64,000 bases of DNA from Paenibacillus dokdonensis (lineage in GTDB: Bacteria; Bacillota; Bacilli; Paenibacillales; Paenibacillaceae). Shown here piece after piece: positions 44,851 to 63,254 of the stretch; within the stretch, counting starts at the first letter, position 1, and each line of letters opens with the position of its first letter. The notes below the pieces were generated by a model. The model was given only the letters and a program-made list of their open reading frames with translations, did not search any database and was not told the origin of the DNA. Where the stretch lies: positions 514,501 to 578,500 of the forward strand of contig NZ_STGQ01000003.1 of NCBI RefSeq assembly GCF_004916975.1, written 5' to 3'. The position numbers were made by a program, and so were the translations under genes.

Positions 44851-44968
44851 ATACCTAGTTCGTATTTGGATTGTAAACCAGTTCAAAAAACTTTCACAAT
44901 CAATTATGTTACAATAAGGATCAATGAAAACCTAGAGAGCGGATTGTTTTTGAATGAGGAGGATTCCA

Positions 44969-45928
44969 ATGTCCAGCGATATATCATACACAACCGAAGA
45001 GATCGCCAAAATGCTCAAAATATCCAAGCTTACAGTCTATGACCTGATCAAAAAGGGCGAGCTGCCTTCGTACCGGGTCGGCAAGCAAATGCGGATCGAT
45101 GCGTCGGACTTCGAAGCATACAAACAGAGAGCCAAAGGCGTTAAGACGGCTCCTCAGACTGTATCTGCATCGTCTGGGGATCACTCCCCAACTCACTATG
45201 CCGCGCCAGCTGTAAACGGAATACGACCGATCGTCATCACAGGGCAGGATATCAGCCTCGATATTCTGGTTAAATATATGGAAAAAGGCATCTCCGGCAT
45301 CCGGCCGCTGCGCGAGTATGTTGGCAGCCTCGACAGTCTGATTTCCATGTACCGCGGCGAGTCGGATATCGTCAGTACCCATCTGCTGGACGGCGATACC
45401 GGCGAATATAACATCCCGTACATCCGCAAGCTTCTGGTCGGTTCATCGTATATGGTTGTCAATTTGCTATCCAGAAATGCCGGACTTTATGTCCAGAAGG
45501 GCAACCCGCATGGACTGGAAAGCTGGACGGATCTGAGCCGCCCTGGCCTGCGCTTTATGAACCGCGAAAAGGGCTCCGGGGCCCGCGTTCTTCTGGACGA
45601 GCAGCTTCGTCTGCATGGCATCAAACCACAGACGTTGGCCGGATACGAACTGGAGCAAACGAATCATATCGGGGTAGCCGCTAAAGTGGCTTCCGGTGAA
45701 GCTGATGTGGGTGTCGGTATTGAAAAGGCCGCAGCCATCGTCGGTCAGGTGGATTTTATCCCGCTGATCGAAGAGCGCTACGACCTGGTGATGCTGAAAA
45801 CCGCGGACAATATGGCATGGATTCAGTCCTTACTGATTATTCTGCGCTCGGATGACTTCCGTAAGGAGCTGCAGGCCATTGCCGGGTACGACCTTTCCCG
45901 CACAGGAGAGATTTTGTACGAAACCTGA
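44969..45928 (+). CDS. Molybdate-type regulator: excisionase-like helix-turn-helix plus substrate-binding-like domain
   Basis: A 319-residue one-component regulator. Residues about 5-60 (YTTEEIAKMLKISKLTVYDLIKKGELPSYRVG) form an excisionase/MerR-like helix-turn-helix; residues about 85-315 form a PBP-like domain (DISLDILVKYMEK, GSGARVLLDEQL, ASGEADVGVGIEKAA). This architecture is known next to mod or moa genes, where it takes the place of ModE. Start 44969 is chosen because AGGAGG lies six bases before it. Divergent from modAB, so it probably represses or senses molybdate/tungstate for that operon. Confidence 0.88.
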   Translation: MSSDISYTTEEIAKMLKISKLTVYDLIKKGELPSYRVGKQMRIDASDFEAYKQRAKGVKTAPQTVSASSGDHSPTHYAAPAVNGIRPIVITGQDISLDILVKYMEKGISGIRPLREYVGSLDSLISMYRGESDIVSTHLLDGDTGEYNIPYIRKLLVGSSYMVVNLLSRNAGLYVQKGNPHGLESWTDLSRPGLRFMNREKGSGARVLLDEQLRLHGIKPQTLAGYELEQTNHIGVAAKVASGEADVGVGIEKAAAIVGQVDFIPLIEERYDLVMLKTADNMAWIQSLLIILRSDDFRKELQAIAGYDLSRTGEILYET

Positions 45929-47011: not shown

Positions 47012-47383
47012 TCATTCAAATTGCGGTCTCAGTTTTTCATCGAAATATCTCAGGCGATCTTCTTCATTCTGAAACTGGAGCATGATCTCGGCGGCATCAC
47101 TATATGCCCGGCGGCGCCTTATGTTCCGGCTGCAAATCCATAACAAGACGATATAGGAAATGATGACATACAAACTCCATGAAGTGAGGAAAAGCGCGAG
47201 CCCAAGAGCTAATTGCACAGTCCAGAAAAGAGCTCCAAAGAACAATATGCCTCCAAATTTAATCAGGATTTCATTCGTTTGAATGATATTTTCGCTCCGG
47301 AGCTGCCTTGTAATAATATCTTCCGTACTCAAGCTCATATACGATTCGCAAGCCTTATAATAGTACTTATTGTAGCGCTTCAT
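47012..47383 (-). CDS. Small membrane protein of unknown function
   Basis: A 123-residue protein with a basic Tyr-rich start, two central transmembrane segments (about 43-83) and a charged helical tail (LQFQNEEDRLRYFDEKLRPQ). GGGGGGAG lies five bases before the ATG. Stand-alone gene with its own terminator. I do not recognise a family. Confidence 0.7.
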   Translation of the reverse strand: MKRYNKYYYKACESYMSLSTEDIITRQLRSENIIQTNEILIKFGGILFFGALFWTVQLALGLALFLTSWSLYVIISYIVLLWICSRNIRRRRAYSDAAEIMLQFQNEEDRLRYFDEKLRPQFE

Positions 47384-47551
47384 AACGGCTCCCCCCGCAC
47401 ATTGTACTTTTTTGCACTATGTAAAATTATTCTACATAAATAAAAATATTCCTTTTTCATTTTCAGCTAAAATGAACTTTTGAATGGATACATTGCTTGG
47501 GCGCTGCGAAGCCGAGTGTTCTTACGACCGCTGTGAAATGTTATGTAACTG

Positions 47552-47599
47552 AAAAAAACGAACCGTGATTGAAGGGATGTCCTTCTATCGCGACCCGTT
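47552..47599 (-). terminator. Terminator of the ribosyl-compound operon
   Basis: On the minus strand GAAGG and CCTTC form the top of a longer imperfect stem (AACGGGTCGCGAT with ATCACGGTTCGTT), followed by TTTTTT. It ends the operon running from 58902 to 47628. Confidence 0.7.
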
Positions 47600-47627
47600 A
47601 TTTGTCTTATATTTTTTTTAGTTCATC

Positions 47628-48518
47628 CTATATCAGCTCGCTAAGTGAAGGAATCGAATGCTGCGCTCCCGAGCGTGTAACCGTAATGGATGCTGCCTGC
47701 TGTGCCAGATCGACGGCTTCGCCCATGGTCTTGCCGGAGCAGATCATGGCTGCCAGCGTGCCTGCGAACGTGTCGCCAGCGGCCGTCGTATCCACGGCAT
47801 TCACCTTTCGTCCCTCTTTATGGACATTGGTGCTTCCGTCGTAGTAAACGACTCCTTTGTCCCCAAGAGTAATTAACGGGTAGCAGATTCCTTTTGCCCG
47901 CAGCAGATCAAGCGCAGCTAATGCATCCGCAATGCCGCGAATTTCATGACCTGTATAGAGTGCACATTCATGCTCATTCGGCATGAAATAGTCCACTCCC
48001 TGCAGGATATCCTCATCGATTGCAACCGCTGGGGCCGGATTCAAAAATACAGAAACCTTGCCCTTCACCAGCCGGATCGCCTCATAGACCGAATCCAGCG
48101 GTATTTCCAGCTGCAGCAGCACCGCATCGGCTGACAGCAGCTCTTCCTCATACTGCCGGATATAGGCCGGCGTCACCTTCGCATTGGCCCCGCTATCAAG
48201 AATAATGGCGTTGTCTCCTTCGCAGACCGTGATCACGGCGACCCCGGATGTCGTATCCGGTTCTACAGCGATAAAATCAGGCTTTACGCCATAACCCGTC
48301 AGGCTGTCAACCAACGACTTGCCAAAAAGATCATTTCCCACTTTCCCGAGAAGCCAAGTATCCGCGCCCATTCTTGCACAGGCTACTGCCTGATTGGCTC
48401 CTTTACCGCCGGACGCGAGGAAGAATCTCTCCCCGTGTATGGTTTCCCCTCGATGCGGAATACGGCCGGTTTCCATGACCATATCCATATTTGCACTGCC
48501 TATCACAATGATTTTCAT
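47628..48518 (-). CDS. rbsK: Ribokinase (PfkB family)
   Basis: A 296-residue PfkB-family kinase with all ribokinase signatures: GSANMDMVM near the start, substrate motif GGKGANQAVACARMG, and the C-terminal anion-hole and catalytic-base motif DTTAAGDTFAG. It should phosphorylate D-ribose at O5 with ATP. Last gene of a nine-gene operon containing two ADP-ribosylglycohydrolase-family enzymes that could release the pentose. Ribose transport is not of the RbsABC type here; an LplABC-like importer is encoded upstream instead. Confidence 0.88.
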   Translation of the reverse strand: MKIIVIGSANMDMVMETGRIPHRGETIHGERFFLASGGKGANQAVACARMGADTWLLGKVGNDLFGKSLVDSLTGYGVKPDFIAVEPDTTSGVAVITVCEGDNAIILDSGANAKVTPAYIRQYEEELLSADAVLLQLEIPLDSVYEAIRLVKGKVSVFLNPAPAVAIDEDILQGVDYFMPNEHECALYTGHEIRGIADALAALDLLRAKGICYPLITLGDKGVVYYDGSTNVHKEGRKVNAVDTTAAGDTFAGTLAAMICSGKTMGEAVDLAQQAASITVTRSGAQHSIPSLSELI

Positions 48519-48548
48519 ATATATCCTCGATTCAGATTATTGATGTTG

Positions 48549-50654
48549 TTATCGCTCTGTCAACCGAATATCGCGGAAATACGTTCTTGCCGCACCCAGG
48601 GTGCTGACGCCATACATGCCATAGGCAAAAGTGTCATCTGTATGCTTAAGCAATTCTTCGCCATCGATCGAGAGCGTAATGCTGCTGCCCTGCACGGTTA
48701 CCATCACATCATACTCGTGATTCAGCTCCCAGGCAAACTTGCTGCTTGTCAGCTTTTTATATCCAAAATTGTTGATGTACAAGGATACTTCGCCTTCATC
48801 ATCCAAGCCGGCATGATATCCGCGCATGGCGCCCTGCGCCCGGACAGAGACCAGGTGAGATGAACCGTATTGCGGATTGATCCGGACGGATACTGAATAA
48901 TCTTCGCCAAAGTAGTTCCCAGTGTAGGCCTCTGCCGGATCCGCCGTCATAAGGTACATGGCATCGTGATCCAGTGACCATGCTCCGTGGTTATGCGAGA
49001 ATGGCGTGACACAGCCAAAGTTAATCTGCTGCTTGGCAAAATCAATGGAATATTCCGATTTACCTGTGATATGGAATTCATCAATAAAGATGCGGCCCAT
49101 ACTCTTGAATTTGCCCGGTGAATAAGATTCAAGCACAATGCCGACTTCGTCGATCAGCTCGCCGCCGGAATCTGGAATCGTAAACTCGACATGCAGCCAT
49201 TCCTTGTCGACCAGTTTGATATATCCTTGTACCAGTTCCTTCTTGCTGGTTGCCAGCCGTACATATGGAGCAATACCCATGGTTTCATTACCGTTCCATT
49301 GATCCAGGTAAATTTGCATAGAGACCTTTTGTCCTGAATACGCTTTAGGAGCAAACGTTGGTGAGTAACGTTCATCATTAAATTCATCTCTCGTATAGAA
49401 GGGTTTGTAATATACTTTGGAATTTTCTCCGCGTACCATCCTGTCAAAGCCGACTTCAAGCGATCCTTTCCCTTGATAAGCCATTTCTGTGGAATGCTTC
49501 ATGCGGCATAGGAACGGATTCGAGAGCCGGATATTATGTGTTGAGCCAGGCAGTTCAAAATCGAAGTAAATTTCGTCTTCCTTGTAGCTGTCTGTCAGCC
49601 ACTGCGGACAAGGCTGTTTCGCTATACGGTAGCCGAGGATCGAGAGCTCTTTGGCATATGTCGGGATATCGAGAATGTTCAGGTAACCCGATATTCCAGA
49701 CATTACAATCGAGTCATTAATTGGACCGCGGTATCTGTCCGCGATCCCGTCCAGCCCGCATGTTACGCCGAGAACCGTCCCCACATTCCCCGCATTGCAG
49801 TCCGTATCCCAGCTGCACATCGTAGCAATTTCAACGGTACGATTGAAGTCACCCTGTCCATAGATCATGGCAAGCACACACACGCCGGCGTTCGGAATAA
49901 TGTGGCATACGCCCGTATATTTGTCATAACCCCAATCGCGTTCCAGCATATCACGGCAGGCGCGGAAATCATCCGGATGCTCCTTATGGAATTCCAGCAC
50001 GGCATGCGCCACTTTCGAATATGTAGACTCTGCCGGAATTTGCGCTAGACCTGCAGCAATGATCTCATCTATATCACTGGTTTCAAAAGCTTGGGAAATC
50101 GACGCACAGAAAAACCGCGCTCCCAGCACACCTTCCCCATCATGTGAAACTCGGGCAGCCGCCTCACCCAGATCAGCCGCCTTTTTCGGATTTCCCGGAG
50201 TAATCAGTCCCCATGTATCGATAAAGATCTGTCCTCCTATCTGCTCCGCAACAATTTGTCCGTTCTGTGCGATCGAGCCACACTGTGGCGCGGGTATGCC
50301 CCGTTTCAGATTGACATATACGGTATGCTCAGTACTAATGCCATATCCTCCCCACCAGAACATGCCGACGCCTTCACGGGCATAGTTGAGCCAAGCGCGG
50401 GCAACGTCATTGGGGGTGATATCCCGTTCCTTGGCATCGTCATACAACGCCCTCAGGAAATAATAAGGACCATTGGCGTCATCATCCGCTGCAAAATTCT
50501 TAAAGGGTTTGACATAATCCTTAATCTCGCCGTACGTCTTATATATTCTCTCATACGTCCAAAGGGTCGGCTCTACCGGAGCTCCCAGACGTATGCCTAC
50601 ATTCATGCCCAAATAGCCTGCATATACTTTTTCTACATAATTAGAAGGAATCAT
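48549..50654 (-). CDS. ADP-ribosylglycohydrolase-family protein with C-terminal lectin-like domains
   Basis: A 701-residue protein. Residues 1 to about 340 form the all-helical ADP-ribosylglycohydrolase fold, with probable metal ligands in FAADDDANGPYY and CSWDTDCNAGNVGT. Residues about 360-700 are beta-rich, resembling one or two concanavalin/carbohydrate-binding sandwiches (YFDFELPGSTHNIR, DEFHITGKSEYS, YDVMVTVQGSSITLSIDGEELL). No signal peptide is present. DraG/ARH-type enzymes cleave N- or O-ribosyl bonds with Mg2+; a free glycoside substrate is likely here because of the transporter context. It lies between the other ADP-ribosylglycohydrolase-family gene and the ribokinase gene. Confidence 0.85.
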   Translation of the reverse strand: MIPSNYVEKVYAGYLGMNVGIRLGAPVEPTLWTYERIYKTYGEIKDYVKPFKNFAADDDANGPYYFLRALYDDAKERDITPNDVARAWLNYAREGVGMFWWGGYGISTEHTVYVNLKRGIPAPQCGSIAQNGQIVAEQIGGQIFIDTWGLITPGNPKKAADLGEAAARVSHDGEGVLGARFFCASISQAFETSDIDEIIAAGLAQIPAESTYSKVAHAVLEFHKEHPDDFRACRDMLERDWGYDKYTGVCHIIPNAGVCVLAMIYGQGDFNRTVEIATMCSWDTDCNAGNVGTVLGVTCGLDGIADRYRGPINDSIVMSGISGYLNILDIPTYAKELSILGYRIAKQPCPQWLTDSYKEDEIYFDFELPGSTHNIRLSNPFLCRMKHSTEMAYQGKGSLEVGFDRMVRGENSKVYYKPFYTRDEFNDERYSPTFAPKAYSGQKVSMQIYLDQWNGNETMGIAPYVRLATSKKELVQGYIKLVDKEWLHVEFTIPDSGGELIDEVGIVLESYSPGKFKSMGRIFIDEFHITGKSEYSIDFAKQQINFGCVTPFSHNHGAWSLDHDAMYLMTADPAEAYTGNYFGEDYSVSVRINPQYGSSHLVSVRAQGAMRGYHAGLDDEGEVSLYINNFGYKKLTSSKFAWELNHEYDVMVTVQGSSITLSIDGEELLKHTDDTFAYGMYGVSTLGAARTYFRDIRLTER

Positions 50655-50671
50655 TATTATTTTTGCACCAC

Positions 50672-51835
50672 CTATAGTTGAATAGTGTTCATATGCTGTC
50701 TGCGTGCTTCCTGCTCAGCCAGATCCTGCCCAATGATGGCAGCAGCCGTTGCCATAAAGATGCTGCACTGTTTTTCTATTTGCTGCTTGTTAATTTCCTC
50801 AATCGCCTGAATCTCATCTGCCGGAATGGCCTGGATTCCCTGCATCGCCCCAAGAATGGCGCCAATCATAACACCGATGGAATCGGTATCCCTTCCCGAG
50901 CTGACTCCGTCTTTTACCGCTTCCAGCAAATCTCCCTCATGTAATACCATGTAGGCCAGCGCCATAGGCAGCTCTTCAATGGAGAACAAACGGCTTGGCG
51001 TATAGTGGTTCGAAGGCACACCAATCTTGTCGATGCTGCGGTTAACGTCATCTCCCATCGGAGAATTCTTACCTATAATTTCATGAAAATACCTGACCAC
51101 CTCATCGCGGTCCTTCTTTATGGGACGAAGCAATTTGGCAGCTTCACATATATCGGAAATCGCCCGTTTCGTACCATCCTTTGCGTATCGTAGCGCCGTG
51201 TTCACGATATTATCCACCGTTACCCCCGGCTCAAAAGCCTTGGCTACACAGCAGGCCATAACGCCTGCAGCTTCAAGTCCATAGCTGACCTGATGCCCGG
51301 ATGCGAACAAAATTGCTTCATCATATGCGGCCTTCGGATTGCAGGCATTGACGATGCCTACCGGCGCGATATACATCGCTGCACCGCAGTTGACCATATT
51401 GCCGTAGCCGCCTTCACGAGGCTCGCAGTTTGCCAGCACATGGCGGGTGAAGATATGCTTTTCGGGATAGAATAGCCGGTCCATAATGAGGGCTTCCTTG
51501 CCGAACTCCGGAATATAGCGCGGGCGAAAGGCAATTTCCTTCACAAATTCATTGGCCAGATCATACGCATCCAAATGCCGCTGCTCTGTGTCGTATACCT
51601 TCATCAGCGCAAGCGTCATGAGCGTATCATCCGTGACAATCCCCTGGCCTCTCATGCGTCCCAGTCTCGCTGTTTCCGGAAGTTCCGACTTCCACCACCT
51701 CAGCTGCGTGGTTTCCACTCTTCCATACTTCCCTTTAATATCGTTGTATGTCAGCTTCTCGACAACCGCTCCCATTGCGTCACCGAATGCGGTTCCGAAG
51801 ACGACGCCTTTGACGCGGTCTGCAAAAGAAATCAC
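50672..51835 (-). CDS. ADP-ribosylglycohydrolase-family protein
   Basis: A 387-residue single-domain member of the ARH/DraG family. Metal-site motifs are visible: GDAMGAVVEK, IVTDDTLMTLAL and GRDTDSIGVMIGAILGAM. It begins at a GTG (51835) with AAGGAGTG eight bases upstream; a longer frame upstream lacks a ribosome binding site. It is followed by the 701-residue relative with a 17-base gap. In this operon it probably cleaves an imported ribosyl or related glycosidic compound rather than modified proteins. Confidence 0.88.
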   Translation of the reverse strand: MISFADRVKGVVFGTAFGDAMGAVVEKLTYNDIKGKYGRVETTQLRWWKSELPETARLGRMRGQGIVTDDTLMTLALMKVYDTEQRHLDAYDLANEFVKEIAFRPRYIPEFGKEALIMDRLFYPEKHIFTRHVLANCEPREGGYGNMVNCGAAMYIAPVGIVNACNPKAAYDEAILFASGHQVSYGLEAAGVMACCVAKAFEPGVTVDNIVNTALRYAKDGTKRAISDICEAAKLLRPIKKDRDEVVRYFHEIIGKNSPMGDDVNRSIDKIGVPSNHYTPSRLFSIEELPMALAYMVLHEGDLLEAVKDGVSSGRDTDSIGVMIGAILGAMQGIQAIPADEIQAIEEINKQQIEKQCSIFMATAAAIIGQDLAEQEARRQHMNTIQL

Positions 51836-51865
51836 TTGGCTTTCACTCCTTATACAGGAAGCTCG

Positions 51866-51895
51866 GCGGGGGTTCGCTCTTTTAGCGAACCCCGC
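51866..51895 (-). terminator. Intra-operon hairpin after the binding-protein gene
   Basis: GCGGGGTTCGCT and AGCGAACCCCCGC form a 12-base-pair stem with a short loop. It lacks a U-run, so RNA processing or protection of the upstream message is more likely than termination. Confidence 0.6.
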
Positions 51896-51910
51896 GCCAT
51901 GCACATCCTT

Positions 51911-53386
51911 TTACTTGATGACTTCATTCGCTTTGGTGGTCAAATCGCTGCCGCCGGCAGCATTCCAATCCTGTACAAACTTGTCAAACTGGTCGATTGG
52001 CGTCTTTCCGGTCACGACATTCGCCGCGAACTCTTTGTATACCGCCATGGCGGCATCGTATTTAGACTGCAAATCCTCCGGAATAATGAAGGTATTGTCC
52101 TTGGTGGACTTGGAAGCTACCATATCCAGTGATTTCGTAGCTGCTTCGGAAAGGAACGGCGTAGTAGGGTCAAACTCCTTATCCGGCTTGAAGTTGGTAT
52201 TGTTGTCTACAAAGCGTGCATACCATTCGGCGTATTTGTCCGTGAATTTGATTTTGTCATTTTCAATGGTGTAATGCTCCCCTTCGATCCCCAGCTTCTC
52301 AAGCATTTGTCCTTTCGGGCTGGCCAGGAATTCCAACACAGCGAAGGCCATATCCTTGTTCTTGGATACGCTGGAGATGGCGATGCCGCGGCTTTCCTTG
52401 CTTACGTCAATCGGCAGATATCCTTCACCCACGCCTTTTGCAGGCGGAAGCGGCATAACGGTTGCCGTTTTTCCATTTTGGGACACAGACTTGCTGTTAT
52501 ACATGTCGATAACCTTGCCCTGTGTTCCGGCAATAACTGCTGCCTGGCCGTCGTAGAAAGCCTTTTCCTTCGTATCCCATTTCTTCGTCAGGAATTCCGG
52601 GTCAAGCAATCCTTCTTTGTAGAGCTTTGCATAGAATTCCAATTTTTCTTTTTCGAATTTCGTTGTTCTGCCAAATGCATACTTGCCATCTTCACCTTTG
52701 AGCCAGGTTGAGGTAAGCCCAAACGCCTGCGCGAACACGGCGTCCAGCTCGTCCAGATCACCAGGTACGGTATAAGCAAATTTAGCGCCGTTCTTTTCCT
52801 TCACTTCTTTGAAGAAATTATAGTAGTTTTCAATGCTTGGGTTTTCCAGAAGCGTTTTCCCGGAAGTCGTTTTGTCAAAAAAGTCCTGGCGAACGACCGG
52901 TACCTTGGTCGTTGATGGAGACAGCCACACCAAATACGGATAATTTGCTGTGCGTTCCTGGTTGTACGGGTTCATTGCTGCTTTTACATAGGTCGATTTT
53001 TCAATATACGGCGTCAGATCCTCAAGAATCTTCTGGGTCACAGCAAACTGGTAGTCGCCACCCTGGAAGTAAATCAGATCTGGAATTGTGCCGCTCTGCA
53101 GCAGCAGACCGAGCTTTTCAGAATAAGTGCCGCTTTGTACAGGCACGAATTCCAGCTTCACATTTTTGCCTTCAGCCTTCATACCGTCCTCAACCGCTTT
53201 AATCCATGGATCATCCGGAGCCATGTCTTTATAAACAATACTGATAGTAACCGGACCCTCATTTCCTTTTTCTGAAGAGGCATCAGGAGTACCTTTCGCG
53301 TCCTGTGCCGACTCTTTTCCACCCGAGCTGCAAGCCGTCGTGAGAATCATAAGCACCGCAATGACCATGACCAACATTTTTTTCAT
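51911..53386 (-). CDS. LplA-like ABC transporter solute-binding lipoprotein
   Basis: A 491-residue lipoprotein with lipobox ILTTAC. The body follows the large LplA/AlgQ-like CUT1 binding proteins: ISIVYKDMAPDDPW, IPDLIYFQGGDYQF, WLSPSTTKVPVVRQDFF. GGGAGG precedes its ATG. It follows the two permease genes, unlike the other sugar operons in this window where the binding protein comes first. A ribosylated or otherwise pentose-containing ligand is inferred from neighbouring enzymes only. Confidence 0.9.
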   Translation of the reverse strand: MKKMLVMVIAVLMILTTACSSGGKESAQDAKGTPDASSEKGNEGPVTISIVYKDMAPDDPWIKAVEDGMKAEGKNVKLEFVPVQSGTYSEKLGLLLQSGTIPDLIYFQGGDYQFAVTQKILEDLTPYIEKSTYVKAAMNPYNQERTANYPYLVWLSPSTTKVPVVRQDFFDKTTSGKTLLENPSIENYYNFFKEVKEKNGAKFAYTVPGDLDELDAVFAQAFGLTSTWLKGEDGKYAFGRTTKFEKEKLEFYAKLYKEGLLDPEFLTKKWDTKEKAFYDGQAAVIAGTQGKVIDMYNSKSVSQNGKTATVMPLPPAKGVGEGYLPIDVSKESRGIAISSVSKNKDMAFAVLEFLASPKGQMLEKLGIEGEHYTIENDKIKFTDKYAEWYARFVDNNTNFKPDKEFDPTTPFLSEAATKSLDMVASKSTKDNTFIIPEDLQSKYDAAMAVYKEFAANVVTGKTPIDQFDKFVQDWNAAGGSDLTTKANEVIK

Positions 53387-53420
53387 TAGGCTAAAGCCTC
53401 CCTTTTAAATGACCTATCTA

Positions 53421-54305
53421 TTATTCTTTGACGCCGCCTTCCATTACTCCGCTCGTGTAGTACTTCAGGATAATGGGGTACAGCATAAGAATCGGAACCA
53501 TGGCAACCACGATTGTAGCCGCTTTCAATGAATTAAAGTCAAGCTGGGCGATACTGCTGTTCTTCAGAAGATCCGAGATTCCCACAAGGGTTGAGGTATC
53601 CCGCTCGACGACAAATTGTCTGAGGAGCACCTGCAGCACCGTCTTGTTCGGACTGGATAGAAAAATGCTCGATTTGAAAAATTCATTCCATTTGGCAATC
53701 GCATAGAACATTCCGATGGTGAGCAGCGGTATACGGGACAACGGCAAGACAATTCTCACAAACACCCGCATATGCCCTGCACCATCAATCCGGGCGGCTT
53801 CCATCAGTGATTCCGGAATATCCTCGATAAACCGCATCATGATGACGAGATAGAATACGTTGATCATCCGGTACATAACCATGGACCACAGACTGTCGAG
53901 CAGGTGCAGATCCTTCATCACGAAATATTCCTGAACGTAACCGGGCTCGAAAATCATGATAATAATCAGAAAAATCATAATCGGCGTTTTGCCGACCAGA
54001 TTTTTACGTGTGAGCACATAGGCGGTAATCGTTGTGAAAAACAGGCTGAAGCAGGTGCCAACGACCGTGATAAACAGTGAATTTCCAATGGCCTGTCCGA
54101 CGATCGGATTGCTCAGAACCACCTGAAAATTAATAAGAGAAAAGCCCTTAGGGATGACGCCAAGTCCTGTCAGCTCATGCAACTTGTCCGGATTGGAAAA
54201 GGCTCTGGCAAATATATTGATAACCGGGATAAACATCATGAGCGTTAACAAGGTTAAAGCAATGCCAATGGCCAGCTTCGGCAGTGTGAATTTTCTTCCT
54301 ACCAT
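53421..54305 (-). CDS. ABC transporter permease (LplC/YtcP type)
   Basis: A 294-residue six-segment permease with EAA loop EAARIDGAGHMRVFV and end TSGVMEGGVKE. Partner of the LplB-like permease encoded 12 bases upstream; GGGAGGAAATGAA precedes the start. The pair should form the channel of the importer in the ribosyl-compound operon. Confidence 0.92.
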   Translation of the reverse strand: MVGRKFTLPKLAIGIALTLLTLMMFIPVINIFARAFSNPDKLHELTGLGVIPKGFSLINFQVVLSNPIVGQAIGNSLFITVVGTCFSLFFTTITAYVLTRKNLVGKTPIMIFLIIIMIFEPGYVQEYFVMKDLHLLDSLWSMVMYRMINVFYLVIMMRFIEDIPESLMEAARIDGAGHMRVFVRIVLPLSRIPLLTIGMFYAIAKWNEFFKSSIFLSSPNKTVLQVLLRQFVVERDTSTLVGISDLLKNSSIAQLDFNSLKAATIVVAMVPILMLYPIILKYYTSGVMEGGVKE

Positions 54306-54317
54306 TTCATTTCCTCC

Positions 54318-55244
54318 CTACCATGCGCCTTTGCCGGTCATTTTTTTCGATAAGAAATGGGTGGACAGAACCAGAATGACTCCGATCAGGCTCTTGAACA
54401 AATTCGCTGCTGTAGCAAGGGAATATTGACCATTGAGCAAGCCCATGCGGTACACGAAGGTATCGATGATATCAATATGGCTGGCGATAGAATCGTTCGT
54501 AAAGTTCAGGATTTGATCCAGTCCTGCGTTCATGATAAAGCCGATATTCAGGATAAAAATCGTTACCATCGGTATCAACAGATGCGGCAAGACAATCCGG
54601 GTCATGATATGCCAGCGGCTGGCTCCATCCACGCGGGCTGCTTCATAAAGGGCAGGATTAATGCCAATGATCGCCGCGAGGTAGATGATGGAATCCCAAC
54701 CCATGCTGCGCCACGCTTCACTCGCCACGAGCACCCAGCGGATGCTGCTCTTGTCGGTCAGAAAGTCATGAGGCTGAAACCCGAAAAACTTAATGATTTC
54801 ATTAATAGCTCCGGTTGATGGGGACAAAAATTCATACCATACACCGGCAATAACAACCCAGGAAAGAAAATGCGGAAGATAGGAAACGACCTGTACGGTC
54901 TTACGGAAGGCTCCATTCATGAACTCATTCAGAGCCAGGGCGAACAGAATCGGAATCGGGAAGAGCAGGAACATTTTCATCGCGCTGATAATCAGCGTAT
55001 TCACGATGACTTTTGTGAAAATAGGCGTGCTGAACAGCTCTTTGAAGTATTTGAAGCCAACGAAGATATCGTCGCCAATGATGCGGTAATCATAAAAGGC
55101 GAGCTTCATCTCATAAATCGGCCAGATATGAAAAATGACATAGAAGAGGATGGCCGGCAGCAGCATCAGATACAGGATTTTGTCAGCACTGATCTGCTTG
55201 AGCTTGGAGGGCTTGGGAGCCGGGAGTGACCTCGTCCTGCTCAT
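54318..55244 (-). CDS. ABC transporter permease (LplB type)
   Basis: A 308-residue permease with a basic N-terminus, six transmembrane segments and EAA loop EAARVDGASRWHIMTR. Its ATG overlaps the stop codon of the DUF4387 gene in an ATGA arrangement, so translation is probably coupled, tying transport to that gene. No ATPase subunit is encoded in the operon. Confidence 0.92.
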   Translation of the reverse strand: MSRTRSLPAPKPSKLKQISADKILYLMLLPAILFYVIFHIWPIYEMKLAFYDYRIIGDDIFVGFKYFKELFSTPIFTKVIVNTLIISAMKMFLLFPIPILFALALNEFMNGAFRKTVQVVSYLPHFLSWVVIAGVWYEFLSPSTGAINEIIKFFGFQPHDFLTDKSSIRWVLVASEAWRSMGWDSIIYLAAIIGINPALYEAARVDGASRWHIMTRIVLPHLLIPMVTIFILNIGFIMNAGLDQILNFTNDSIASHIDIIDTFVYRMGLLNGQYSLATAANLFKSLIGVILVLSTHFLSKKMTGKGAW

Positions 55245-55552
55245 ATCTCCACCTCCAGGTCCATTAGCGGCGCATGCTGCTGTGCTCCGTAAACGTCACG
55301 GTCCAAAAAAGAACCGGATGACACGCTACGGGCGAAGGTTATCTTGAAGCCCATGGCCTGATCAAAAAATACAATCTGCGTGATATGATCGGGCTCAATA
55401 TTGTAAAGTCTGGACACGGTATCTTTGTTGATGATTCCGGACTGTTTGATCTTGTTGTATGTATCAAAATGATCAAACAGCGCATCTACAGTGATTTCAA
55501 ATGGTCCGCTGTTCTTGCTGCGCAGTACGGCGGCAGCATCATAGAGCTTCAT
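55241..55552 (-). CDS. DUF4387-family protein
   Basis: A 103-residue protein (KLYDAAAVLRSKNSGPFEIT at the start, MGFKITFARS near the end) that fits DUF4387. This family usually occurs as a small partner next to, or fused to, AtuA/DUF1446 proteins. Its start and stop both overlap the neighbouring genes by four bases (ATGA), indicating a tightly coupled unit with the AtuA-like protein. Biochemical function not established. Confidence 0.82.
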   Translation of the reverse strand: MKLYDAAAVLRSKNSGPFEITVDALFDHFDTYNKIKQSGIINKDTVSRLYNIEPDHITQIVFFDQAMGFKITFARSVSSGSFLDRDVYGAQQHAPLMDLEVEI

Positions 55553-56919
55553 TTCGATCCCCCCTGAATGAATTCGCAGGTGAACATCTCAAGAGCGTCT
55601 CTCACTTCCATTAGATGATAGATGGAAAATTCATAGACAGCACCAAACGAAATGTCACTTGGGGCAAATGGAAAGGCAAGATTGCCAGCCGTGGACTTCC
55701 GTCCCTCGTAACCGTAATGCAGGAAGGTAGAACGGACCGAGCTGCATATCGTGTCGGCGAGCTCCTGCGTATCGGCAACCACCTCGATCACAATCCCAAC
55801 CTCATGCCCCGGTATTGGAGTCGGCTCCAGCTGTCCCATCACACCGTTAAAACCGTAATTAATAAAATTAATTTGGTAAGCGTTTACAGGTATATCATCG
55901 TAGTATTCATGGACCTGCTGCTTGACGAGTTTTTCCACTTCCTCGATCTTGGAGATCAGAAGCGGATCGCGGACACCTGCCACAACAATCGTGCGGTAAG
56001 CGGTTTTCATGGCTCCCTCAAGCTTGATTTTATATACTGGCGTTTCATGGATTCTGCTGCCGCTTACCTCGACGCTGCCGTCTCCCAGCTCCTTGAATTC
56101 GCATTGCTCCAGATCCAGAATCGAGCCGGGACCGTGCAGCAAATACGGATGATCCTTTTCGTAAAAGGTATGCGCCGCCACTGAGATGGTCGTACATTTC
56201 CTCTTGTCGTTCAGTGGCTTCACAATAAAAGAATCCTTCTTCAGAATGCCAAGCATGCAATCTTTCGTAGTTCCGGGATCCGCACAAAGCGCCGCACATT
56301 CCAGGATTTTGCCGAGATGATAAGCGAGCGCCGTATCAAAGCCGTTATGAATGGCTGCCGCCGCGAACGGTGACGGATCATAGGCCCGGCCGCAGATAAT
56401 AATGTCGGCACCAGCTTTCAGCGCTTTGACAATGGGCTCATGGCCCATTTGGGCCACGATGCGGCTCGTCTCTTCAAGGCGCTCCTCCGTTAATGGCTTT
56501 ACCGTCAGGTTAAGGGGCTCACACTTGCCTGCCGCAAGACTTGCCTTCACCACTTCATGCGGAATGTCGGCCCAGATCACCGCGATATTCAGGTCGCTCA
56601 GCTGATGTTCCTTCACAATCTCCATCACGATAGACTGTGTCCATTCCACGTGAATCCGGGCACCGCTGCCGCCTGCAGATCCGATAATAACCGGAATGCC
56701 GGACGCAGCACCTGCCGTAATCATAAGCTCCAGATCTTTCTTGCATGCCTGTTTACTGACAATCGCCGTCCCTGCGCCCAGCTTATGCGGACCGGCATCC
56801 GTCGAACCCGCATCGACCACAATAGCGTCAGGCCTCTGCTCCATTCCCTTCTGGAATGAAGCCTTCGGAAATCCATAGCCCAGCATGCCGCAAGGTGCTA
56901 ATATTCTGTATTCATCCAT
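55549..56919 (-). CDS. AtuA/DUF1446-family protein
   Basis: About 456 residues; the family is named for AtuA of acyclic terpene utilisation. Visible signatures: LAPCGMLGYGF, DAIVVDAGSTDAGPHKLGAG, IIGSAGGSGARIHVEWT, ADIIICGRAYDPSPFAAAA. The family is probably an enzyme with a Rossmann-like core, but its reaction is unproven. Start is uncertain: 56919 follows a GGAGG site by 11 bases, while an in-frame ATG at 56946 directly follows the upstream stop codon. Coupled to DUF4387, in an operon for a ribosyl-type compound where no terpene genes are seen. Confidence 0.85.
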   Translation of the reverse strand: MDEYRILAPCGMLGYGFPKASFQKGMEQRPDAIVVDAGSTDAGPHKLGAGTAIVSKQACKKDLELMITAGAASGIPVIIGSAGGSGARIHVEWTQSIVMEIVKEHQLSDLNIAVIWADIPHEVVKASLAAGKCEPLNLTVKPLTEERLEETSRIVAQMGHEPIVKALKAGADIIICGRAYDPSPFAAAAIHNGFDTALAYHLGKILECAALCADPGTTKDCMLGILKKDSFIVKPLNDKRKCTTISVAAHTFYEKDHPYLLHGPGSILDLEQCEFKELGDGSVEVSGSRIHETPVYKIKLEGAMKTAYRTIVVAGVRDPLLISKIEEVEKLVKQQVHEYYDDIPVNAYQINFINYGFNGVMGQLEPTPIPGHEVGIVIEVVADTQELADTICSSVRSTFLHYGYEGRKSTAGNLAFPFAPSDISFGAVYEFSIYHLMEVRDALEMFTCEFIQGGSK

Positions 56920-56946
56920 GCTCACCTTAGCCTCCATCTTATGCAT

Positions 56947-58902
56947 TTACATATATATTCGGATTGTGTCCTGATCCGGCAGCGATGGCTGCGCACCTTC
57001 CCTGCTTACGGTAATGCCTGCCGCCAGCGAACCATAGCGGATGGCTTCAATCATGTCCTTTCCTTCGGACAACGCCACGGTCAGGCCACTGATGAACGAA
57101 TCGCTTGCAGCCGTCGTATCGACAGCTCTGAAATCCGCAGCCGCGAAGTACTGCTTCGTGTCCCCGTTAATCAGCAAGCAGCCTCTTTCACCCAATGTCA
57201 CAATCACGTTCTGATAGTTCATATTCAGCAGCCGGTACGCTTTCTCCTCAATGGACTGCTCGCCTGGTAACATCAGGGCCAGCTCAGTTTCGTTGGGAAC
57301 GATCAGGAAGCCTTCCTCAAAGTTCTCGAAGTTGAAATTATGCGCGGGTGCGGGCTTGATGATGAGCTTTACGTTTTTACGCTTGCAGATGCTCGCGACA
57401 TAACGGATCGTATCCGCTGGAATCTCCATCTGTACCAGACAGAATGACACTTCATCGAAGATCCATTCCACGTTCTGTACCTGCTCCAGATTCAGCCGGG
57501 AATTTGCCCCCGGGTTAACAACGATATTGTTCTCCCCTTTATCCGAGACATGGATATACGCATTGCCTGTGGGTAGAAGCTCATCGAAGATGACGCCACT
57601 TGCATCCACTCCATTTTTAATCAACCCGTTGTAGAGCTCCCGTCCATATAGGTCATTCCCGACCCTGCCAATCATGTAGACCTTGCCTCCGAGCTTGCCA
57701 GCCCCAACCGCCTGGTTCGCTCCCTTGCCGCCGGCAGCATTCTTGACGTCCTGCGCCAGAATGGTCTCTCCAACCTTGGGAATATGAGGCACCCGCATGA
57801 TGATGTCCATGTTCAAGCTACCTACGATCGCGATTTTCTCCTTCGGTGTCAGATCGATATGAGGGGCATCTGATACACTGTCACGAACGACAACGGAAGG
57901 CTGAAATACCAGCTTCTTCCCTCTCTCCTGATGACGGATTTGGCCGAGCAAGGTCATGACCGCCGCGAACCCGCTTTCGTAAAGTGGATACTGAACCGAG
58001 CTTAGGGACGGGATGACCAGCTCGCAGATATCCGAATCACCGAAACCGATCACAGACAGCGCGTCCGGGATACGGACGGACTGCTCCGCCGCCGCAGTAT
58101 AGACACCGCATGCGATAATATCGCTGCATGTCACGATCGCTGTCGCACCCATGGACAGAAGATACTTGGCTCCTTCGTAGCCGCTGGACTTTTGATTGCC
58201 CGATGCGCTTTCATAAACAAGATTTTTATCCAGGTTAATATGACTCTCATACAGCGCCTTCTTGTAGCCTTCCAGCTTGGCGAGCTCAGAAAGATTCGTT
58301 AATGGACCACCGATATAGCCGATTCGCTCATGTCTGCCTTCAATCAGACCTTGCACAGCCAGATAAATACCTTGCTCAACATCCAGTGTGATATGCGAAA
58401 TATCCGCTTCATAGGTATGATGATCCACGATCACTACCGGCAGTTCCTCTTCCGTCTGAGCGGCCAGCGTATCTCCTCTGCGCTCTGGAGCAGGAACCAG
58501 CAGGATACCTTCTACATTGCGGTCCTGAAGGATTCTAAGATAATGCTTCTCCTTCGATTCAAGGCCTTCCGTATGGCAGATGATGAGGCTCATCTCTTCC
58601 TGGTAAGCCGCGGCTTCGGCACCCCGGATCCATTCTCTGCTTGCAACATCACCGGACGAGATCACAAGCCCGATCGTGTCGCTCTTCGCGCCCATCCGTT
58701 TGACAACTTTGCGGTAGGGAATATAGTTGTGATCACTGATCACCTTGTTTATCTTCGCCCGGGTCTCTTCGCTAATATCCTGGTCTTTGCTATTAAGCAC
58801 TTTGGAAACGGTTGCAATAGAGACTCCGGCAAGTCTCGCAATATCTTTAATTGTCATTGTGCTGGAACCTGAAGATTCTGAAGGACTATACCATTTATCC
58901 AT
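56947..58902 (-). CDS. LacI-family regulator fused to a ribokinase-like domain
   Basis: A 651-residue fusion. Residues about 16-70 form a LacI helix-turn-helix (MTIKDIARLAGVSIATVSKVLNS is the site start), about 75-345 a periplasmic-binding-protein-like effector domain (GLVISSG, IGYIGGPLTN, VIGFGD), and about 355-651 a PfkB kinase domain with GSLNMDIIM and AAGGKGANQAVGAG. The C-terminal motif reads DTTAASDSF (595-603): catalytic Asp601 is kept but the anion-hole glycine has become serine. It may be a kinase, or a pseudo-kinase that senses sugar. First gene of the operon, so it probably autoregulates it. AGAGGTTGTAGG precedes the ATG. Confidence 0.92.
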   Translation of the reverse strand: MDKWYSPSESSGSSTMTIKDIARLAGVSIATVSKVLNSKDQDISEETRAKINKVISDHNYIPYRKVVKRMGAKSDTIGLVISSGDVASREWIRGAEAAAYQEEMSLIICHTEGLESKEKHYLRILQDRNVEGILLVPAPERRGDTLAAQTEEELPVVIVDHHTYEADISHITLDVEQGIYLAVQGLIEGRHERIGYIGGPLTNLSELAKLEGYKKALYESHINLDKNLVYESASGNQKSSGYEGAKYLLSMGATAIVTCSDIIACGVYTAAAEQSVRIPDALSVIGFGDSDICELVIPSLSSVQYPLYESGFAAVMTLLGQIRHQERGKKLVFQPSVVVRDSVSDAPHIDLTPKEKIAIVGSLNMDIIMRVPHIPKVGETILAQDVKNAAGGKGANQAVGAGKLGGKVYMIGRVGNDLYGRELYNGLIKNGVDASGVIFDELLPTGNAYIHVSDKGENNIVVNPGANSRLNLEQVQNVEWIFDEVSFCLVQMEIPADTIRYVASICKRKNVKLIIKPAPAHNFNFENFEEGFLIVPNETELALMLPGEQSIEEKAYRLLNMNYQNVIVTLGERGCLLINGDTKQYFAAADFRAVDTTAASDSFISGLTVALSEGKDMIEAIRYGSLAAGITVSREGAQPSLPDQDTIRIYM

Positions 58903-59416
58903 CCTACAACCTCTTTTTAATATACTTTGGGAACAATTCTGGTAATCTGCTTCTCATACTGGTGGAAGTTCTGGTGAGTAAAACTGATGAGTTTGACTGT
59001 GAGTTATGTGGAAAATCGCGGCGAAACTATTTTAGTAAAATGATTTCGTGACACAAACTTAGCATGAAATATTTCTCAAGTCAATTGTTTCCTTGGATAA
59101 AAATCCCGTATTTTTCACCTTGTAGGAATAGAACATTCCAGGTGATTTCCGAAGAAAAAAACTTATTCAAATTGGAATTACATCATACATTAATACAACA
59201 AAAAACTACATTCGACATGTGGTATAGGAGAAAATATCTACATGCCAATACATAAAATTTTAGTTATTTAAGCCCCTGTACAAGCAGATTATTCTCCTGT
59301 ATGCTCTTGCTACATCATATGTAGATGGAGACAGACCTACAGATTTAAGAATCCATTCCTTCTGCATATTACGGACTCTTTTTCAGAAGCATAGGTGTGG
59401 TTTCTCTCGGCCCAAA

Positions 59417-59434
59417 AGTTTAGGCGCTTAAACT
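59417..59434. promoter_or_regulatory. LacI/CcpA-type palindrome, distal copy
   Basis: AGTTTAGGCGCTTAAACT is an 18-base imperfect palindrome with a GCGC centre, 143 bases before the chitosanase start. Confidence 0.5.
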
Positions 59435-59530
59435 AATGTGAAAAATGGAAGGAGCTGATTCATCCTACAAATGTCATCTCAATATTTTCAGCCTGAGTCG
59501 GAAATTCAGCGGTGATTTATTTTCGCCTAA

Positions 59531-59550
59531 AAGTTAAAGCGCTTTTACTT
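59531..59550. promoter_or_regulatory. LacI/CcpA-type palindrome, proximal copy
   Basis: AAGTTAAAGCGCTTTTACTT is a 20-base near-perfect palindrome with a GCGC centre, ending 26 bases before the chitosanase ATG. Its centre is 115 bases from that of the distal copy. The core AAAGCGCTTT matches the general LacI-family/cre pattern. Confidence 0.55.
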
Positions 59551-59576
59551 AATTAAAATTCAGGAGGAATTTAATA

Positions 59577-60605
59577 ATGAAAACAACGAATACTGGATCA
59601 ACCACCACCAAAGGAAAATTCATTGCGATTTTGCTGAGCTTTGCTGTTCTTGGTTCGATTACCGTCATGTCCGGTCCTGTGCAAACAAAGGCTTTTGCTG
59701 ATGAAAATAACGCTCCTGTTGAGTCCTTGGATGGAGCAGAGCTGAGCAGCGATCCGGAAATCGGAACCAGTGAGTCCTTGTCGGCCGAAAGCGCTGATTT
59801 CAGCGCTCAAGCTGTTGCAGCTGCTACAGATCATGATGCCAACTTCTCTCCGAGCACCCTTCAATTCCTGAAAACCAATACGGGACTTGACGGTGAACAA
59901 TGGGATAACATCATGAAGCTCGTGAACAAGCCTGAACAGGATGACCTGAACTGGACAAAATATTACGGATACTGCGAGGATATCGGCGACAACCGCGGAT
60001 ACACGATCGGCATTTTCGGCGCGACGACCGGTGGTTCCAATGACACCGGCCCGGATGGTCCGGATCTTTTCAAAGAATATGACAGAATCAGCGGAGCAAG
60101 CAGTCCGTCGGTTGAGGGCGGTCTGAAGCGTATCGGGGTCAATGGGAAGATGAGCGGTTCGATTTTGAAAATAACGGATAGCAAAAGCGTATTTATCAAA
60201 AAAATTAACGGACTCCAAAACAACGCGGCCTGGAGAGAAGCCATGTGGCGCACCTTCTATAATGTATATATCAAATATAGTGTAGACCAAGCGAAGAAAC
60301 GCGGCTTCACCTCGGCCCTGACCATCGGTTCTTTCGTGGATACTGCTTTGAACCAAGGCGCTGACGGGGATTCCGGCAGTCTGGAAGGCATTCTCTCCCG
60401 TTCCGGCAGCAGCAAGGACGAAAAGACCTTTATGACCAAATTCTATGCCGAACGCACCAAGATCGTGGACACGAACGACTATAACCAGCCACCCAACGGG
60501 AAAAACCGTGTAAAACAATGGAGCTCTCTCCTGAGCTCAGGAGAAACGGATCTGAAGAATGCCGATGCGGCTGTCAAAAAGGCTACCAGCTGGACCATGC
60601 AGTAA
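59577..60605 (+). CDS. csn: Secreted chitosanase, glycoside hydrolase family 46
   Basis: A 342-residue secreted endo-chitosanase. Signal peptide to about residue 41 (AFA-D), then an acidic Ser/Ala-rich linker (about 42-85) and the GH46 domain (about 88-342). Catalytic residues are placed by the family pattern as Glu120 (NKPEQDD) and Asp138 (CEDIGDNRGYT); their 18-residue spacing equals that of the Streptomyces N174 enzyme. It cleaves beta-1,4-glucosamine polymers such as fungal-wall chitosan. AGGAGG lies nine bases before the ATG. Two LacI-type palindromes upstream point to sugar-dependent control. Confidence 0.92.
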   Translation: MKTTNTGSTTTKGKFIAILLSFAVLGSITVMSGPVQTKAFADENNAPVESLDGAELSSDPEIGTSESLSAESADFSAQAVAAATDHDANFSPSTLQFLKTNTGLDGEQWDNIMKLVNKPEQDDLNWTKYYGYCEDIGDNRGYTIGIFGATTGGSNDTGPDGPDLFKEYDRISGASSPSVEGGLKRIGVNGKMSGSILKITDSKSVFIKKINGLQNNAAWREAMWRTFYNVYIKYSVDQAKKRGFTSALTIGSFVDTALNQGADGDSGSLEGILSRSGSSKDEKTFMTKFYAERTKIVDTNDYNQPPNGKNRVKQWSSLLSSGETDLKNADAAVKKATSWTMQ

Positions 60606-63236: not shown

Positions 63237-63254
63237 TTCCATCTCTCCATACAC

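What the first reader, a model, noticed from the sequence alone, without database searches (positions are those of the whole stretch)
47628..58902. Candidate uncharacterised operon for import and breakdown of a ribosyl-type compound
Nine co-directional genes, several overlapping by ATGA, encode in order: LacI-ribokinase fusion, AtuA/DUF1446, DUF4387, LplB- and LplC-like permeases, binding lipoprotein, two ADP-ribosylglycohydrolase-family enzymes and a ribokinase. ADP-ribosylglycohydrolases act on ribosyl bonds and ribokinase uses ribose, so the gene set reads as uptake, glycosidic cleavage and pentose phosphorylation. The AtuA/DUF4387 pair, known from terpene contexts, would then act on the aglycone or an acid. 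I know of no described pathway with this exact set.
Basis: partly seen in the sequence, partly recalled or inferred. Interest (0 to 1): 0.85.

Follow-up and report, generated by a model that had tools for sequence, protein, structure and literature searches.

The report
Operon for eating a ribose–hydroxyacid conjugate
A nine-gene bacterial operon, conserved in many Bacillota, looks like a complete kit for importing an unknown compound made of ribose and a citramalate-like acid, splitting it, and feeding both halves into central metabolism.

Summary
The nine-gene operon is real and conserved. Its terpene reading of AtuA/DUF4387 is out of date: both subunits match the solved CmlA/CmlB "citramalate lyase" (9ERQ; A 51% identical, E 6e-143; B E 3e-25). 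Of 44 order genomes with the long ARH enzyme, 42 carry operon-type CmlA 4.9-6.0 kb away. The two that lack it, one genus, carry a malyl-CoA-lyase-like HpcH/HpaI enzyme and an ATP-grasp CoA ligase instead; that lyase gave no match (E<=1e-20) in the other 42. This looks like replacement of one acid-cleaving route by another and points to a citramalate/malate-type acid. All 32 kinases scanned match the ribokinase model. My model: CUT1 import, ARH cleavage of a ribosyl bond, ribokinase, and CmlAB cleavage of the acid to pyruvate plus a short acid. The LacI-ribokinase fusion is the likely repressor, with a conserved palindrome upstream. Substrate and linkage are unknown; nothing was assayed. No paper of the library searched holds the term DUF4387.

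The parts
56947..58902 (-). G1: LacI repressor fused to a ribokinase domain (651 aa). Ribose-site N, D and E residues kept (roles recalled); the Gly of the GxGD motif is Ser (AASD), so possibly a sensor rather than an active kinase
   Evidence: Pfam LacI + Peripla_BP_3 + PfkB; TIGR02152 307.5 bits, cut-off 299.65; motif alignment of 9 fusions, of which L033 and L050 and L051 also have Ser
55549..56946 (-). G2: CmlA-like large subunit (AtuA/DUF1446), predicted 2-hydroxy-acid C-C lyase
   Evidence: PDB 9erq_A, E 5.6e-143, 51% identity; one clade of operon CmlA, SH-aLRT 100, quick tree
55241..55552 (-). G3: CmlB-like small subunit (DUF4387)
   Evidence: PDB 9erq_B, E 2.6e-25; Pfam DUF4387 129 bits
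54318..55244 (-). G4: LplB-like CUT1 permease
   Evidence: Pfam BPD_transp_1; match over 35% identity in 77 of 80 loci
53421..54305 (-). G5: LplC-like CUT1 permease
   Evidence: Pfam BPD_transp_1; 76 of 80 loci
51911..53386 (-). G6: extracellular solute-binding lipoprotein (N-terminus ...LMILTTACSS, lipobox read by eye)
   Evidence: Pfam SBP_bac_1; N-terminus printed; 76 of 80 loci
50672..51835 (-). G7: ADP-ribosylglycohydrolase-family enzyme, 387 aa (likely GTG start 51835; ORF opens at 51904)
   Evidence: Pfam ADP_ribosyl_GH 147 bits; GDAMG, TDDT and GRDTDS motifs
48549..50654 (-). G8: long ADP-ribosylglycohydrolase-family enzyme, 701 aa: ARH domain plus beta-sandwich domains, one CBM66-like; no signal peptide evident by eye
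   Evidence: Pfam ADP_ribosyl_GH 175.5 bits, Laminin_G_3 583-673 below its cut-off; model pLDDT 78, residues 90-142 under 50; Foldseek to ARH3 and CBM66; acidic motifs in 77 of 77 relatives
47628..48518 (-). G9: stand-alone ribokinase with complete active-site motifs
   Evidence: TIGR02152 325.8 bits, above cut-off; 4x8f ribokinase E 7e-59; motifs
59022..59048 (.). Palindrome CGAAATCATTTTACTAAAATAGTTTCG, about 120 nt upstream of G1: candidate operator of the LacI-ribokinase repressor
   Evidence: Only site at up to 2 mismatches in the 6.48-Mb genome; the reversed control pattern also gave 1 match per strand. 0-3 mismatches upstream of the fusion gene in 6 further genomes; 6 unrelated matches at 2-3 mismatches in the 2.7 Mb scanned
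59056..59084 (-). Promoter-like TTGACT - 17 nt - TAAGTT just upstream of the palindrome (read by eye; weak -10)
   Evidence: Sequence; NOT among the hits of the consensus scan; TTGAC- boxes also upstream in L039, L052 and L056

Best explanation
A dedicated catabolic operon for a ribose-containing conjugate of a citramalate-type 2-hydroxy-dicarboxylic acid. The lipoprotein and CUT1 permeases (with an ATPase encoded elsewhere) import the conjugate. The two ARH-fold enzymes hydrolyse its ribosyl bond or bonds inside the cell; the CBM66-like domain of the long one may help hold a furanoside. Ribokinase turns the ribose into ribose-5-phosphate. CmlAB cleaves the freed acid, without CoA, into pyruvate (or another 2-oxo acid) plus acetate (or another short acid). 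Both halves then enter central metabolism, so no further enzyme is needed. The LacI-ribokinase fusion probably represses the operon from the palindrome at 59022-59048 and uses its kinase-like domain to sense ribose. Shown by computation: gene content, conservation, family membership, and that CmlA and the HpcH/HpaI lyase exclude each other in 44 genomes. Inferred: the substrate, the linkage, the order of steps, the repressor's ligand.
For: (1) CmlA and CmlB both match the solved heteromer 9erq/9evf. (2) Other CmlAB pairs lie in methylaspartate clusters: methylaspartate ammonia-lyase, glutamate mutase, MutL. (3) 42 of 44 ARH8-bearing order genomes carry operon-type CmlA 4.9-6.0 kb from it, same strand; the other 2 (G112, G577, one genus) carry a malyl-CoA-lyase-like protein (4l9y E 1e-33) and, next to it, an ADP-forming CoA ligase (8wzu E 3e-88). 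The lyase was searched in all 44 genomes and found, at E<=1e-20, in only those 2; the ligase was not searched genome-wide. (4) 32 of 32 kinases scanned (2 domains of the window, 30 of the 61 listed) match TIGR02152 at E<=2e-60, although orthology and position vary: rank correlation of pairwise identity with CmlA 0.45, against 0.84 for ARH8. (5) L212, from a genome not among those with a CmlA match, pairs a long ARH (32%) with a ribokinase and an aldolase. (6) Nearest CmlAB relatives of the operon clade sit beside tripartite tricarboxylate transporters (L158, L159, L161), and L165 beside a TRAP transporter, whereas ARH-linked ones sit beside sugar-type ABC transporters. (7) Two further ARH+CUT1 loci, L166 and L167, carry CmlA from a different clade. 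(8) ARH8 model: ARH3 fold plus CBM66-like domain.
Against: No enzyme was assayed, and 'citramalate lyase' for 9erq is the depositors' label; no paper on it was found. Operon CmlA differs from the methylaspartate-type enzymes at 20 conserved positions, so its acid may not be citramalate; and some of these residues are not special to it (the distant L168-L174 also have G20 and K228, 7 of 7). ARH-family enzymes are not established O-riboside glycosidases. The replacement of CmlAB is one event in one genus. No kinase was seen in 14 of 80 loci, and only 3 of these (L061, L091, L092) end within 0.7 kb of ARH8. L122, L124 and L125 lack ARH8 (L122 and L125 are short contigs; L124 runs into a methylmalonate-semialdehyde dehydrogenase gene). 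L089 and L112 show no LplB relative and L120 a diverged transporter. Esterase genes lie beside some operons, so the bond may be an ester. No natural ribosyl-citramalate was seen in the one paper search tried (listing only).
Confidence: 0.55

Rival explanations
1. The conjugate is an acyl ester (acid esterified to a ribosyl-containing sugar), so an esterase frees the acid and the ARH enzymes only cleave a furanosidic bond in the remaining oligosaccharide.
For: Esterase-like genes recur beside operons: a 301-aa PF00756 type in L039 and L085, relatives of it downstream in L098, L117 and L121, and two tandem matches on the other strand upstream in L090, L094, L095 and L101; esterases related to each other inside L126 and L166; an AXE1/DLH-like protein of 568-593 aa in L038 and L053, with a relative in L054. 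CUT1 transporters usually carry oligosaccharides (recalled).
Against: No esterase is in the window's operon; the three esterase types searched by tblastn matched only these loci among the 149 searched; some lie on the other strand.
Confidence: 0.22
2. The sugar is another pentofuranose (or ribose is only one of several), and the TIGR02152 kinases phosphorylate it; the operon is for a generic acidic furanoside.
For: PfkB specificity is hard to call from sequence; CBM66 is the fructofuranoside-binding module of B. subtilis levanase (specificity recalled; fold match); distant long-ARH genes lie near Gfo/Idh/MocA and xylose-isomerase-like genes.
Against: 32 of 32 kinases scanned match the ribokinase model at E<=2e-60 and keep the ribose-site residues (roles recalled); how many pass the curated cut-off was not counted.
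Confidence: 0.13
3. The ARH enzymes remove ADP-ribose from proteins or nucleotides (as DraG, ARH3), and their place in the operon is regulatory or incidental.
For: G7 and G8 belong to the ADP-ribosylglycohydrolase family with the acidic motifs intact.
Against: Tight linkage to a sugar transporter, ribokinase and acid lyase over several bacterial families; DraG model score of G7 only 57 bits against a cut-off of 337; G8 carries carbohydrate-binding-like domains.
Confidence: 0.05
4. The acid and the sugar are separate nutrients that merely occur together (for example in plant exudate), and the operon handles them in parallel.
For: CmlAB and ribokinase could work independently; related CmlAB loci with acid transporters presumably act on a free acid.
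Against: Only one transporter set, of sugar type, and no acid transporter in the operon; CmlA and ARH8 identities rise and fall together (rank correlation 0.84).
Confidence: 0.05

Closest known systems
CmlAB citramalate lyase (PDB 9erq/9evf; gene pair of methylaspartate glutamate-fermentation clusters)
   Same: Same two-subunit protein family, 51% identity in the large subunit, 97 positions near-invariant in both groups compared
   Different: Here in an ARH/ribokinase/CUT1 operon with no glutamate mutase E match in the genome; separate clade; 20 clade-specific positions
E. coli yegTUV (nucleoside-type transporter, ARH-family YegU, PfkB-type kinase YegV; repressor YegW/GgaR)
   Same: Transporter + predicted ARH-family enzyme + sugar kinase under a dedicated repressor (PMC10819704, passages read)
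   Different: MFS transporter, no CmlAB, GntR-family repressor reported to sense ADP-glucose; enzyme functions there also unproven
Malyl-CoA / citramalyl-CoA lyase (HpcH/HpaI family) with a CoA ligase
   Same: Found in place of CmlAB in the otherwise similar operons of G112 and G577
   Different: CoA-dependent (recalled) and unrelated in sequence; not in the window's genome at E<=1e-20
Ribokinase RbsK (TIGR02152)
   Same: Both kinase domains of the window pass the curated cut-off
   Different: One copy is fused to a LacI repressor and has a changed GxGD Gly; a third ribokinase over the cut-off lies elsewhere in the genome

Membership tests
CmlAB citramalate lyase | AtuA/DUF1446 large subunit homologous to CmlA | tested here: met
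   9erq_A E 5.6e-143, residues 13-454
CmlAB citramalate lyase | DUF4387 small subunit encoded next to it | tested here: met
   9erq_B E 2.6e-25; four-base overlap
CmlAB citramalate lyase | Same substrate-pocket residues as methylaspartate-type CmlA | tested here: inconclusive
   97 shared near-invariant positions but 20 clade-specific ones such as K55, K228, G20; pocket not mapped
CmlAB citramalate lyase | Cleaves (S)-citramalate to pyruvate and acetate | not testable with these tools
   needs an assay
ADP-ribosylglycohydrolase (ARH) family | Pfam PF03747 domain over the gathering score | tested here: met
   147 and 175.5 bits, cut-off 26.2
ADP-ribosylglycohydrolase (ARH) family | Acidic metal-binding motifs (role recalled) | tested here: met
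   G7 type: TDDT in 68 of 68, GRDTDS in 63 of 68, GDAxGAxxE in 64 of 68; G8 type: ADDDxNGP and WDTDCN in 77 of 77
ADP-ribosylglycohydrolase (ARH) family | Hydrolyses ADP-ribosyl bonds | not testable with these tools
   needs an assay; the DraG equivalog cut-off is not reached by G7 and G8 matches no NCBIfam model
Ribokinase | Over the TIGR02152 equivalog cut-off | tested here: met
   G9 325.8 and G1 307.5 bits against 299.65
Ribokinase | Catalytic GxGD-type motif | tested here: inconclusive
   G9 AAGD met; G1 AASD, with the Gly replaced
CUT1 sugar ABC transporter | Two MalF/MalG-type permeases plus SBP_bac_1 lipoprotein | tested here: met
   the ATPase was not searched for

The most novel reading that the evidence does not exclude
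There is a widespread, undescribed natural nutrient that joins a ribofuranose to a citramalate-type acid. This operon is its dedicated degradation pathway, with the long ARH protein as a new ribofuranosidase type (ARH-fold catalysis plus a CBM66-like module), a CmlAB lyase retuned for this acid, and a ribokinase domain reused as the repressor's ribose sensor.
Probability: 0.35. Interest if true: 0.8.

Novelty: new variant of a known kind. Interest (0 to 1): 0.7.

Why it matters
It assigns a likely chemistry (C-C cleavage of a 2-hydroxy acid) to a gene pair known by the family names "acyclic terpene utilisation AtuA" and DUF4387, and gives ARH-family proteins a carbohydrate-catabolic setting. 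It also predicts an unknown ribose conjugate that many Bacillota can eat. The mutual exclusion of CmlA and the HpcH/HpaI lyase narrows the acid to a small class, so the substrate can be sought with a short panel of assays.

Tried and rejected
Terpene role for AtuA/DUF4387: rejected, because the closest solved relative and the neighbourhoods point to hydroxy-acid cleavage. DraG-type regulation: low model score. Nucleoside salvage: no nucleobase-processing family appeared among the neighbours sent to Pfam, which were a selection, apart from a Ham1-family gene in the methylaspartate loci. Glutamate fermentation: no MutE match in the genome. Extra genes in Clostridia: an FGE-sulfatase-like protein in L091 and the fused protein of L167, and 612/613-aa proteins in L091 and L092, are related in sequence; function not found. 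No RNA family at its gathering score and no tRNA in the window. Promoter and terminator scans of 47300-59600 gave chance-level counts (15 and 13 found against 17.9 and 11.4 expected). Literature: ten searches; passages of PMC4682846 and PMC10819704 were read, all else was seen as listings. The CmlA model lacks its partner, and several conserved loops have pLDDT under 50, so pocket residues could not be mapped. The AXE1/DLH-like protein of L038 has no PDB relative by sequence.

Rows dropped or limited: L085 (broken frames) left out, and L112 out. The tree used 35 of the 80 operon loci plus the window and L135, quick method; L124, in the operon group, has no ARH gene; 9erq is a long branch there. 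In some searches I labelled 15 loci 'methylaspartate' by eye; L149, L150, L153 and L156 also show some of those gene clusters but stayed under 'other'. The patterns came from operon-type CmlA and only the best 80 of 92 loci were kept, so '77 of 80 with ARH8' describes operon-type CmlA only. The 40 loci were chosen by me from the 99 genomes with a match; of those 40, only L135 (an operon member), L166 and L167 showed an ARH match. Kinases: 30 of 61 listed loci kinases went into. CmlA is in two frames in L203, L204 and G669. In one search my ORF picking let opposite-strand ORFs hide genes in L036 and L037; tblastn shows them present. L033 and L035 hold too little upstream DNA to test the palindrome.
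Full report
What is there. Nine minus-strand genes lie between 58902 and 47628, in this order: LacI-ribokinase fusion, AtuA, DUF4387, two CUT1 permeases, binding lipoprotein, ARH (387 aa), long ARH (701 aa), ribokinase. Gaps are 0-75 nt and two junctions overlap by four bases. The first ARH gene probably starts at GTG 51835. The genome shows only these two ARH-family genes, one AtuA match, no glutamate mutase E match and a third ribokinase over the cut-off elsewhere.

The AtuA/DUF4387 pair. Both proteins match the two chains of one solved heteromer, 9erq/9evf, named citramalate lyase CmlA/CmlB by its depositors (E 5.6e-143 and 2.6e-25; 51% identity in the large subunit). I found no paper describing it; no paper in the library holds DUF4387. 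In a 398-genome sample of the phylum, 99 genomes have a match to CmlA. Of 40 loci I picked from these, 15 were labelled as methylaspartate clusters: they carry gene clusters c0-c3, whose single scanned representatives are methylaspartate ammonia-lyase, MutE, MutL and a B12-binding protein; four more loci carry some of these. An earlier paper had noted a DUF1446 gene beside mal in enterobacteria and left the fate of citramalate open (PMC4682846, passages). The window's CmlA belongs to a separate clade: all 37 operon rows lie on one side of one branch, SH-aLRT 100 (quick tree). Its nearest relatives (L158, L159, L161; support 87, not starred) sit beside TctC and TctA genes of a tripartite tricarboxylate transporter (clusters c12 and c13, one representative of each scanned). 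Twenty positions are conserved within the operon clade but differ from the methylaspartate type; K55, K228, G20, T226 and T227 are in 81 of 81 operon sequences. The Tct-linked relatives share K55 in 3 of 3. Against a special pocket: the most distant group, L168-L174, also has G20 and K228 in 7 of 7. I read the differences as the same chemistry with a changed acid, perhaps more anionic or bulkier; that is inference.

Conservation. A pattern scan with operon CmlA gave 80 loci (78 Bacillota, 1 Chloroflexota, 1 unassigned). In these, long ARH is found in 77, CmlB 75, LplB 77, LplC 76, SBP 76, a second ARH of type 7 in 68, and a separate PfkB kinase in 65. Because that scan was biased to operon-type CmlA, I repeated the test from the other side. 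Of 392 order genomes, 44 have the long ARH at E<=1e-200; 42 of these 44, the window's included, have operon-type CmlA on the same contig and strand, 4.9-6.0 kb away. Starting from DUF4387 in the genus, 16 of 100 genomes have it and 15 of the 16 have the operon; the exception, G026, has a 33% CmlA and no ARH match in the fetched 20 kb. Long-ARH relatives at 41-43% identity (L045-L049) show no CmlAB in the fetched stretch.

Gene replacement. Of the two order genomes without operon CmlA, G112 has no CmlA match and G577 only one of 24% identity on another contig. Both are of one genus. They keep the transporter and both ARH genes, and carry downstream a LacI repressor, an HpcH/HpaI lyase, an ATP-grasp CoA ligase and a ribokinase. 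The lyase is closest to malyl-CoA lyase among solved structures (4l9y, E 1e-33), the ligase to ADP-forming hydroxyacid-CoA ligases (8wzu, E 3e-88). In the 44 genomes this lyase is found, at E<=1e-20, only in those two. A CoA-dependent route from a malate/citramalate-type acid to an acyl-CoA and a 2-oxo acid is the known chemistry of that family (recalled). Since two unrelated systems seem to substitute for each other, the acid is most likely of that type. This is probably one evolutionary event (lyases 86% identical).

The ribose half. All 32 kinases scanned (2 domains of the window and 30 of the 61 listed from the 80 loci) match TIGR02152 at E<=2e-60 (this is looser than the curated cut-off, which I did not count) and keep the ribose-site residues (roles recalled). 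They are not all orthologous: identity 34-85% to the window's, and rank correlation of pairwise identity with CmlA 0.45, against 0.84 for ARH8. Repeated recruitment of ribokinases argues that ribose is the sugar. A further locus, L212, from a genome not among those with a CmlA match, pairs a long ARH (32%) with a ribokinase at 340 bits and a DeoC/LacD-type aldolase. Against: 14 of 80 loci show no kinase, and only 3 of them end within 0.7 kb of the long ARH gene.

The ARH enzymes. Both keep the family's acidic motifs. In the model of G8 (pLDDT 78, residues 90-142 under 50) part of the protein resembles ARH3 (TM to target about 0.6-0.7, rmsd 5-7 A) and another domain resembles CBM66 of B. subtilis (TM to target 0.8, 1.9 A over 154 columns); some matches ranked higher by E-value have low TM-scores. 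CBM66 binds terminal fructofuranosides (recalled), which fits a furanoside substrate but does not prove one. No signal peptide is evident by eye, so cleavage is probably intracellular. In eight loci without a type-7 ARH (L077, L078, L081-L083, L091, L092, L126) another ARH type is present; my pattern for its second acidic motif matched only 1 of 15 such proteins, and I did not follow this up.

Regulation. A palindrome at 59022-59048 is the only match in the genome at up to two mismatches (the reversed control pattern also gives one match per strand). It recurs upstream of the LacI-ribokinase gene with 0-3 mismatches in L034/L050 (one genome), L051, L039, L052, L056 and L085. At up to 1 mismatch nothing else matched in the 2.7 Mb scanned; at 2-3 mismatches six unrelated sites did (L089, L106, L112, L127 twice, L156). 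Of the fusions L078 and L083, L083 has a 4-mismatch site and L078 none. The promoter-like boxes next to it are my reading; the consensus scan did not report them. In the window's fusion the GxGD Gly is Ser, also in L033, L050 and L051; it is intact in L039, L052 and L056 and Ala in L078 and L083. Regulators vary: a GntR/FCD-type cluster occurs in 31 loci, in 30 of them just before CmlA, and an AraC-type cluster after CmlB in 6 (one representative of each scanned).

Against and open. No enzyme activity is shown. The linkage is open: esterase-like genes recur near some operons, so an ester is possible. L124 has the transporter, kinase and CmlAB but no ARH match in the fetched stretch, being followed by a methylmalonate-semialdehyde dehydrogenase gene. 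The one paper search for a citramalate riboside showed none in its listing (15 of 356 papers listed), in an incomplete library.

Verdict. My confidence in the whole chain is about 0.55; in the operon as a functional unit about 0.97; in the acid-lyase role about 0.85; in ribose as the released sugar about 0.7.

Noticed in passing
L038 and L213 (G112, G577): Same transporter/ARH operon with CmlAB absent and LacI + malyl-CoA-lyase-like HpcH/HpaI + ATP-grasp CoA ligase + ribokinase downstream.
   Followed up: yes
L166, L167, L165: A second, distant CmlA clade: L166 and L167 with CUT1 transporter and ARH genes, L165 with a TRAP transporter; suggests the sugar-conjugate version arose more than once.
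   Followed up: partly
L091, L092, L167: FGE-sulfatase-like domain with a partner region of unknown family inside or beside the operon (fused in L167; separate genes in L091).
   Followed up: partly
window 59577-60605: GH46 (chitosanase family) gene divergent from the operon, with a perfect AAAGCGCTTT palindrome at 59536-59545 just upstream (1 match in the window, 0.14 expected by chance), possibly a catabolite-repression site.
   Followed up: no
window 61362-63254: Two cyclic-nucleotide-binding stretches fused to a PrsW-type intramembrane protease domain.
   Followed up: no
window 44954-45928: HTH_17 DNA-binding domain fused to a PBP-like ligand domain; looks like a one-component regulator.
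   Followed up: no
L158: The Tct-linked CmlAB relative also has an HpcH-like gene (35% to that of L038) just after the transporter genes.
   Followed up: no
L085: Operon copy in Paenibacillus sp. CC-CFT747 with several genes split in frame; decayed or affected by sequencing errors.
   Followed up: no
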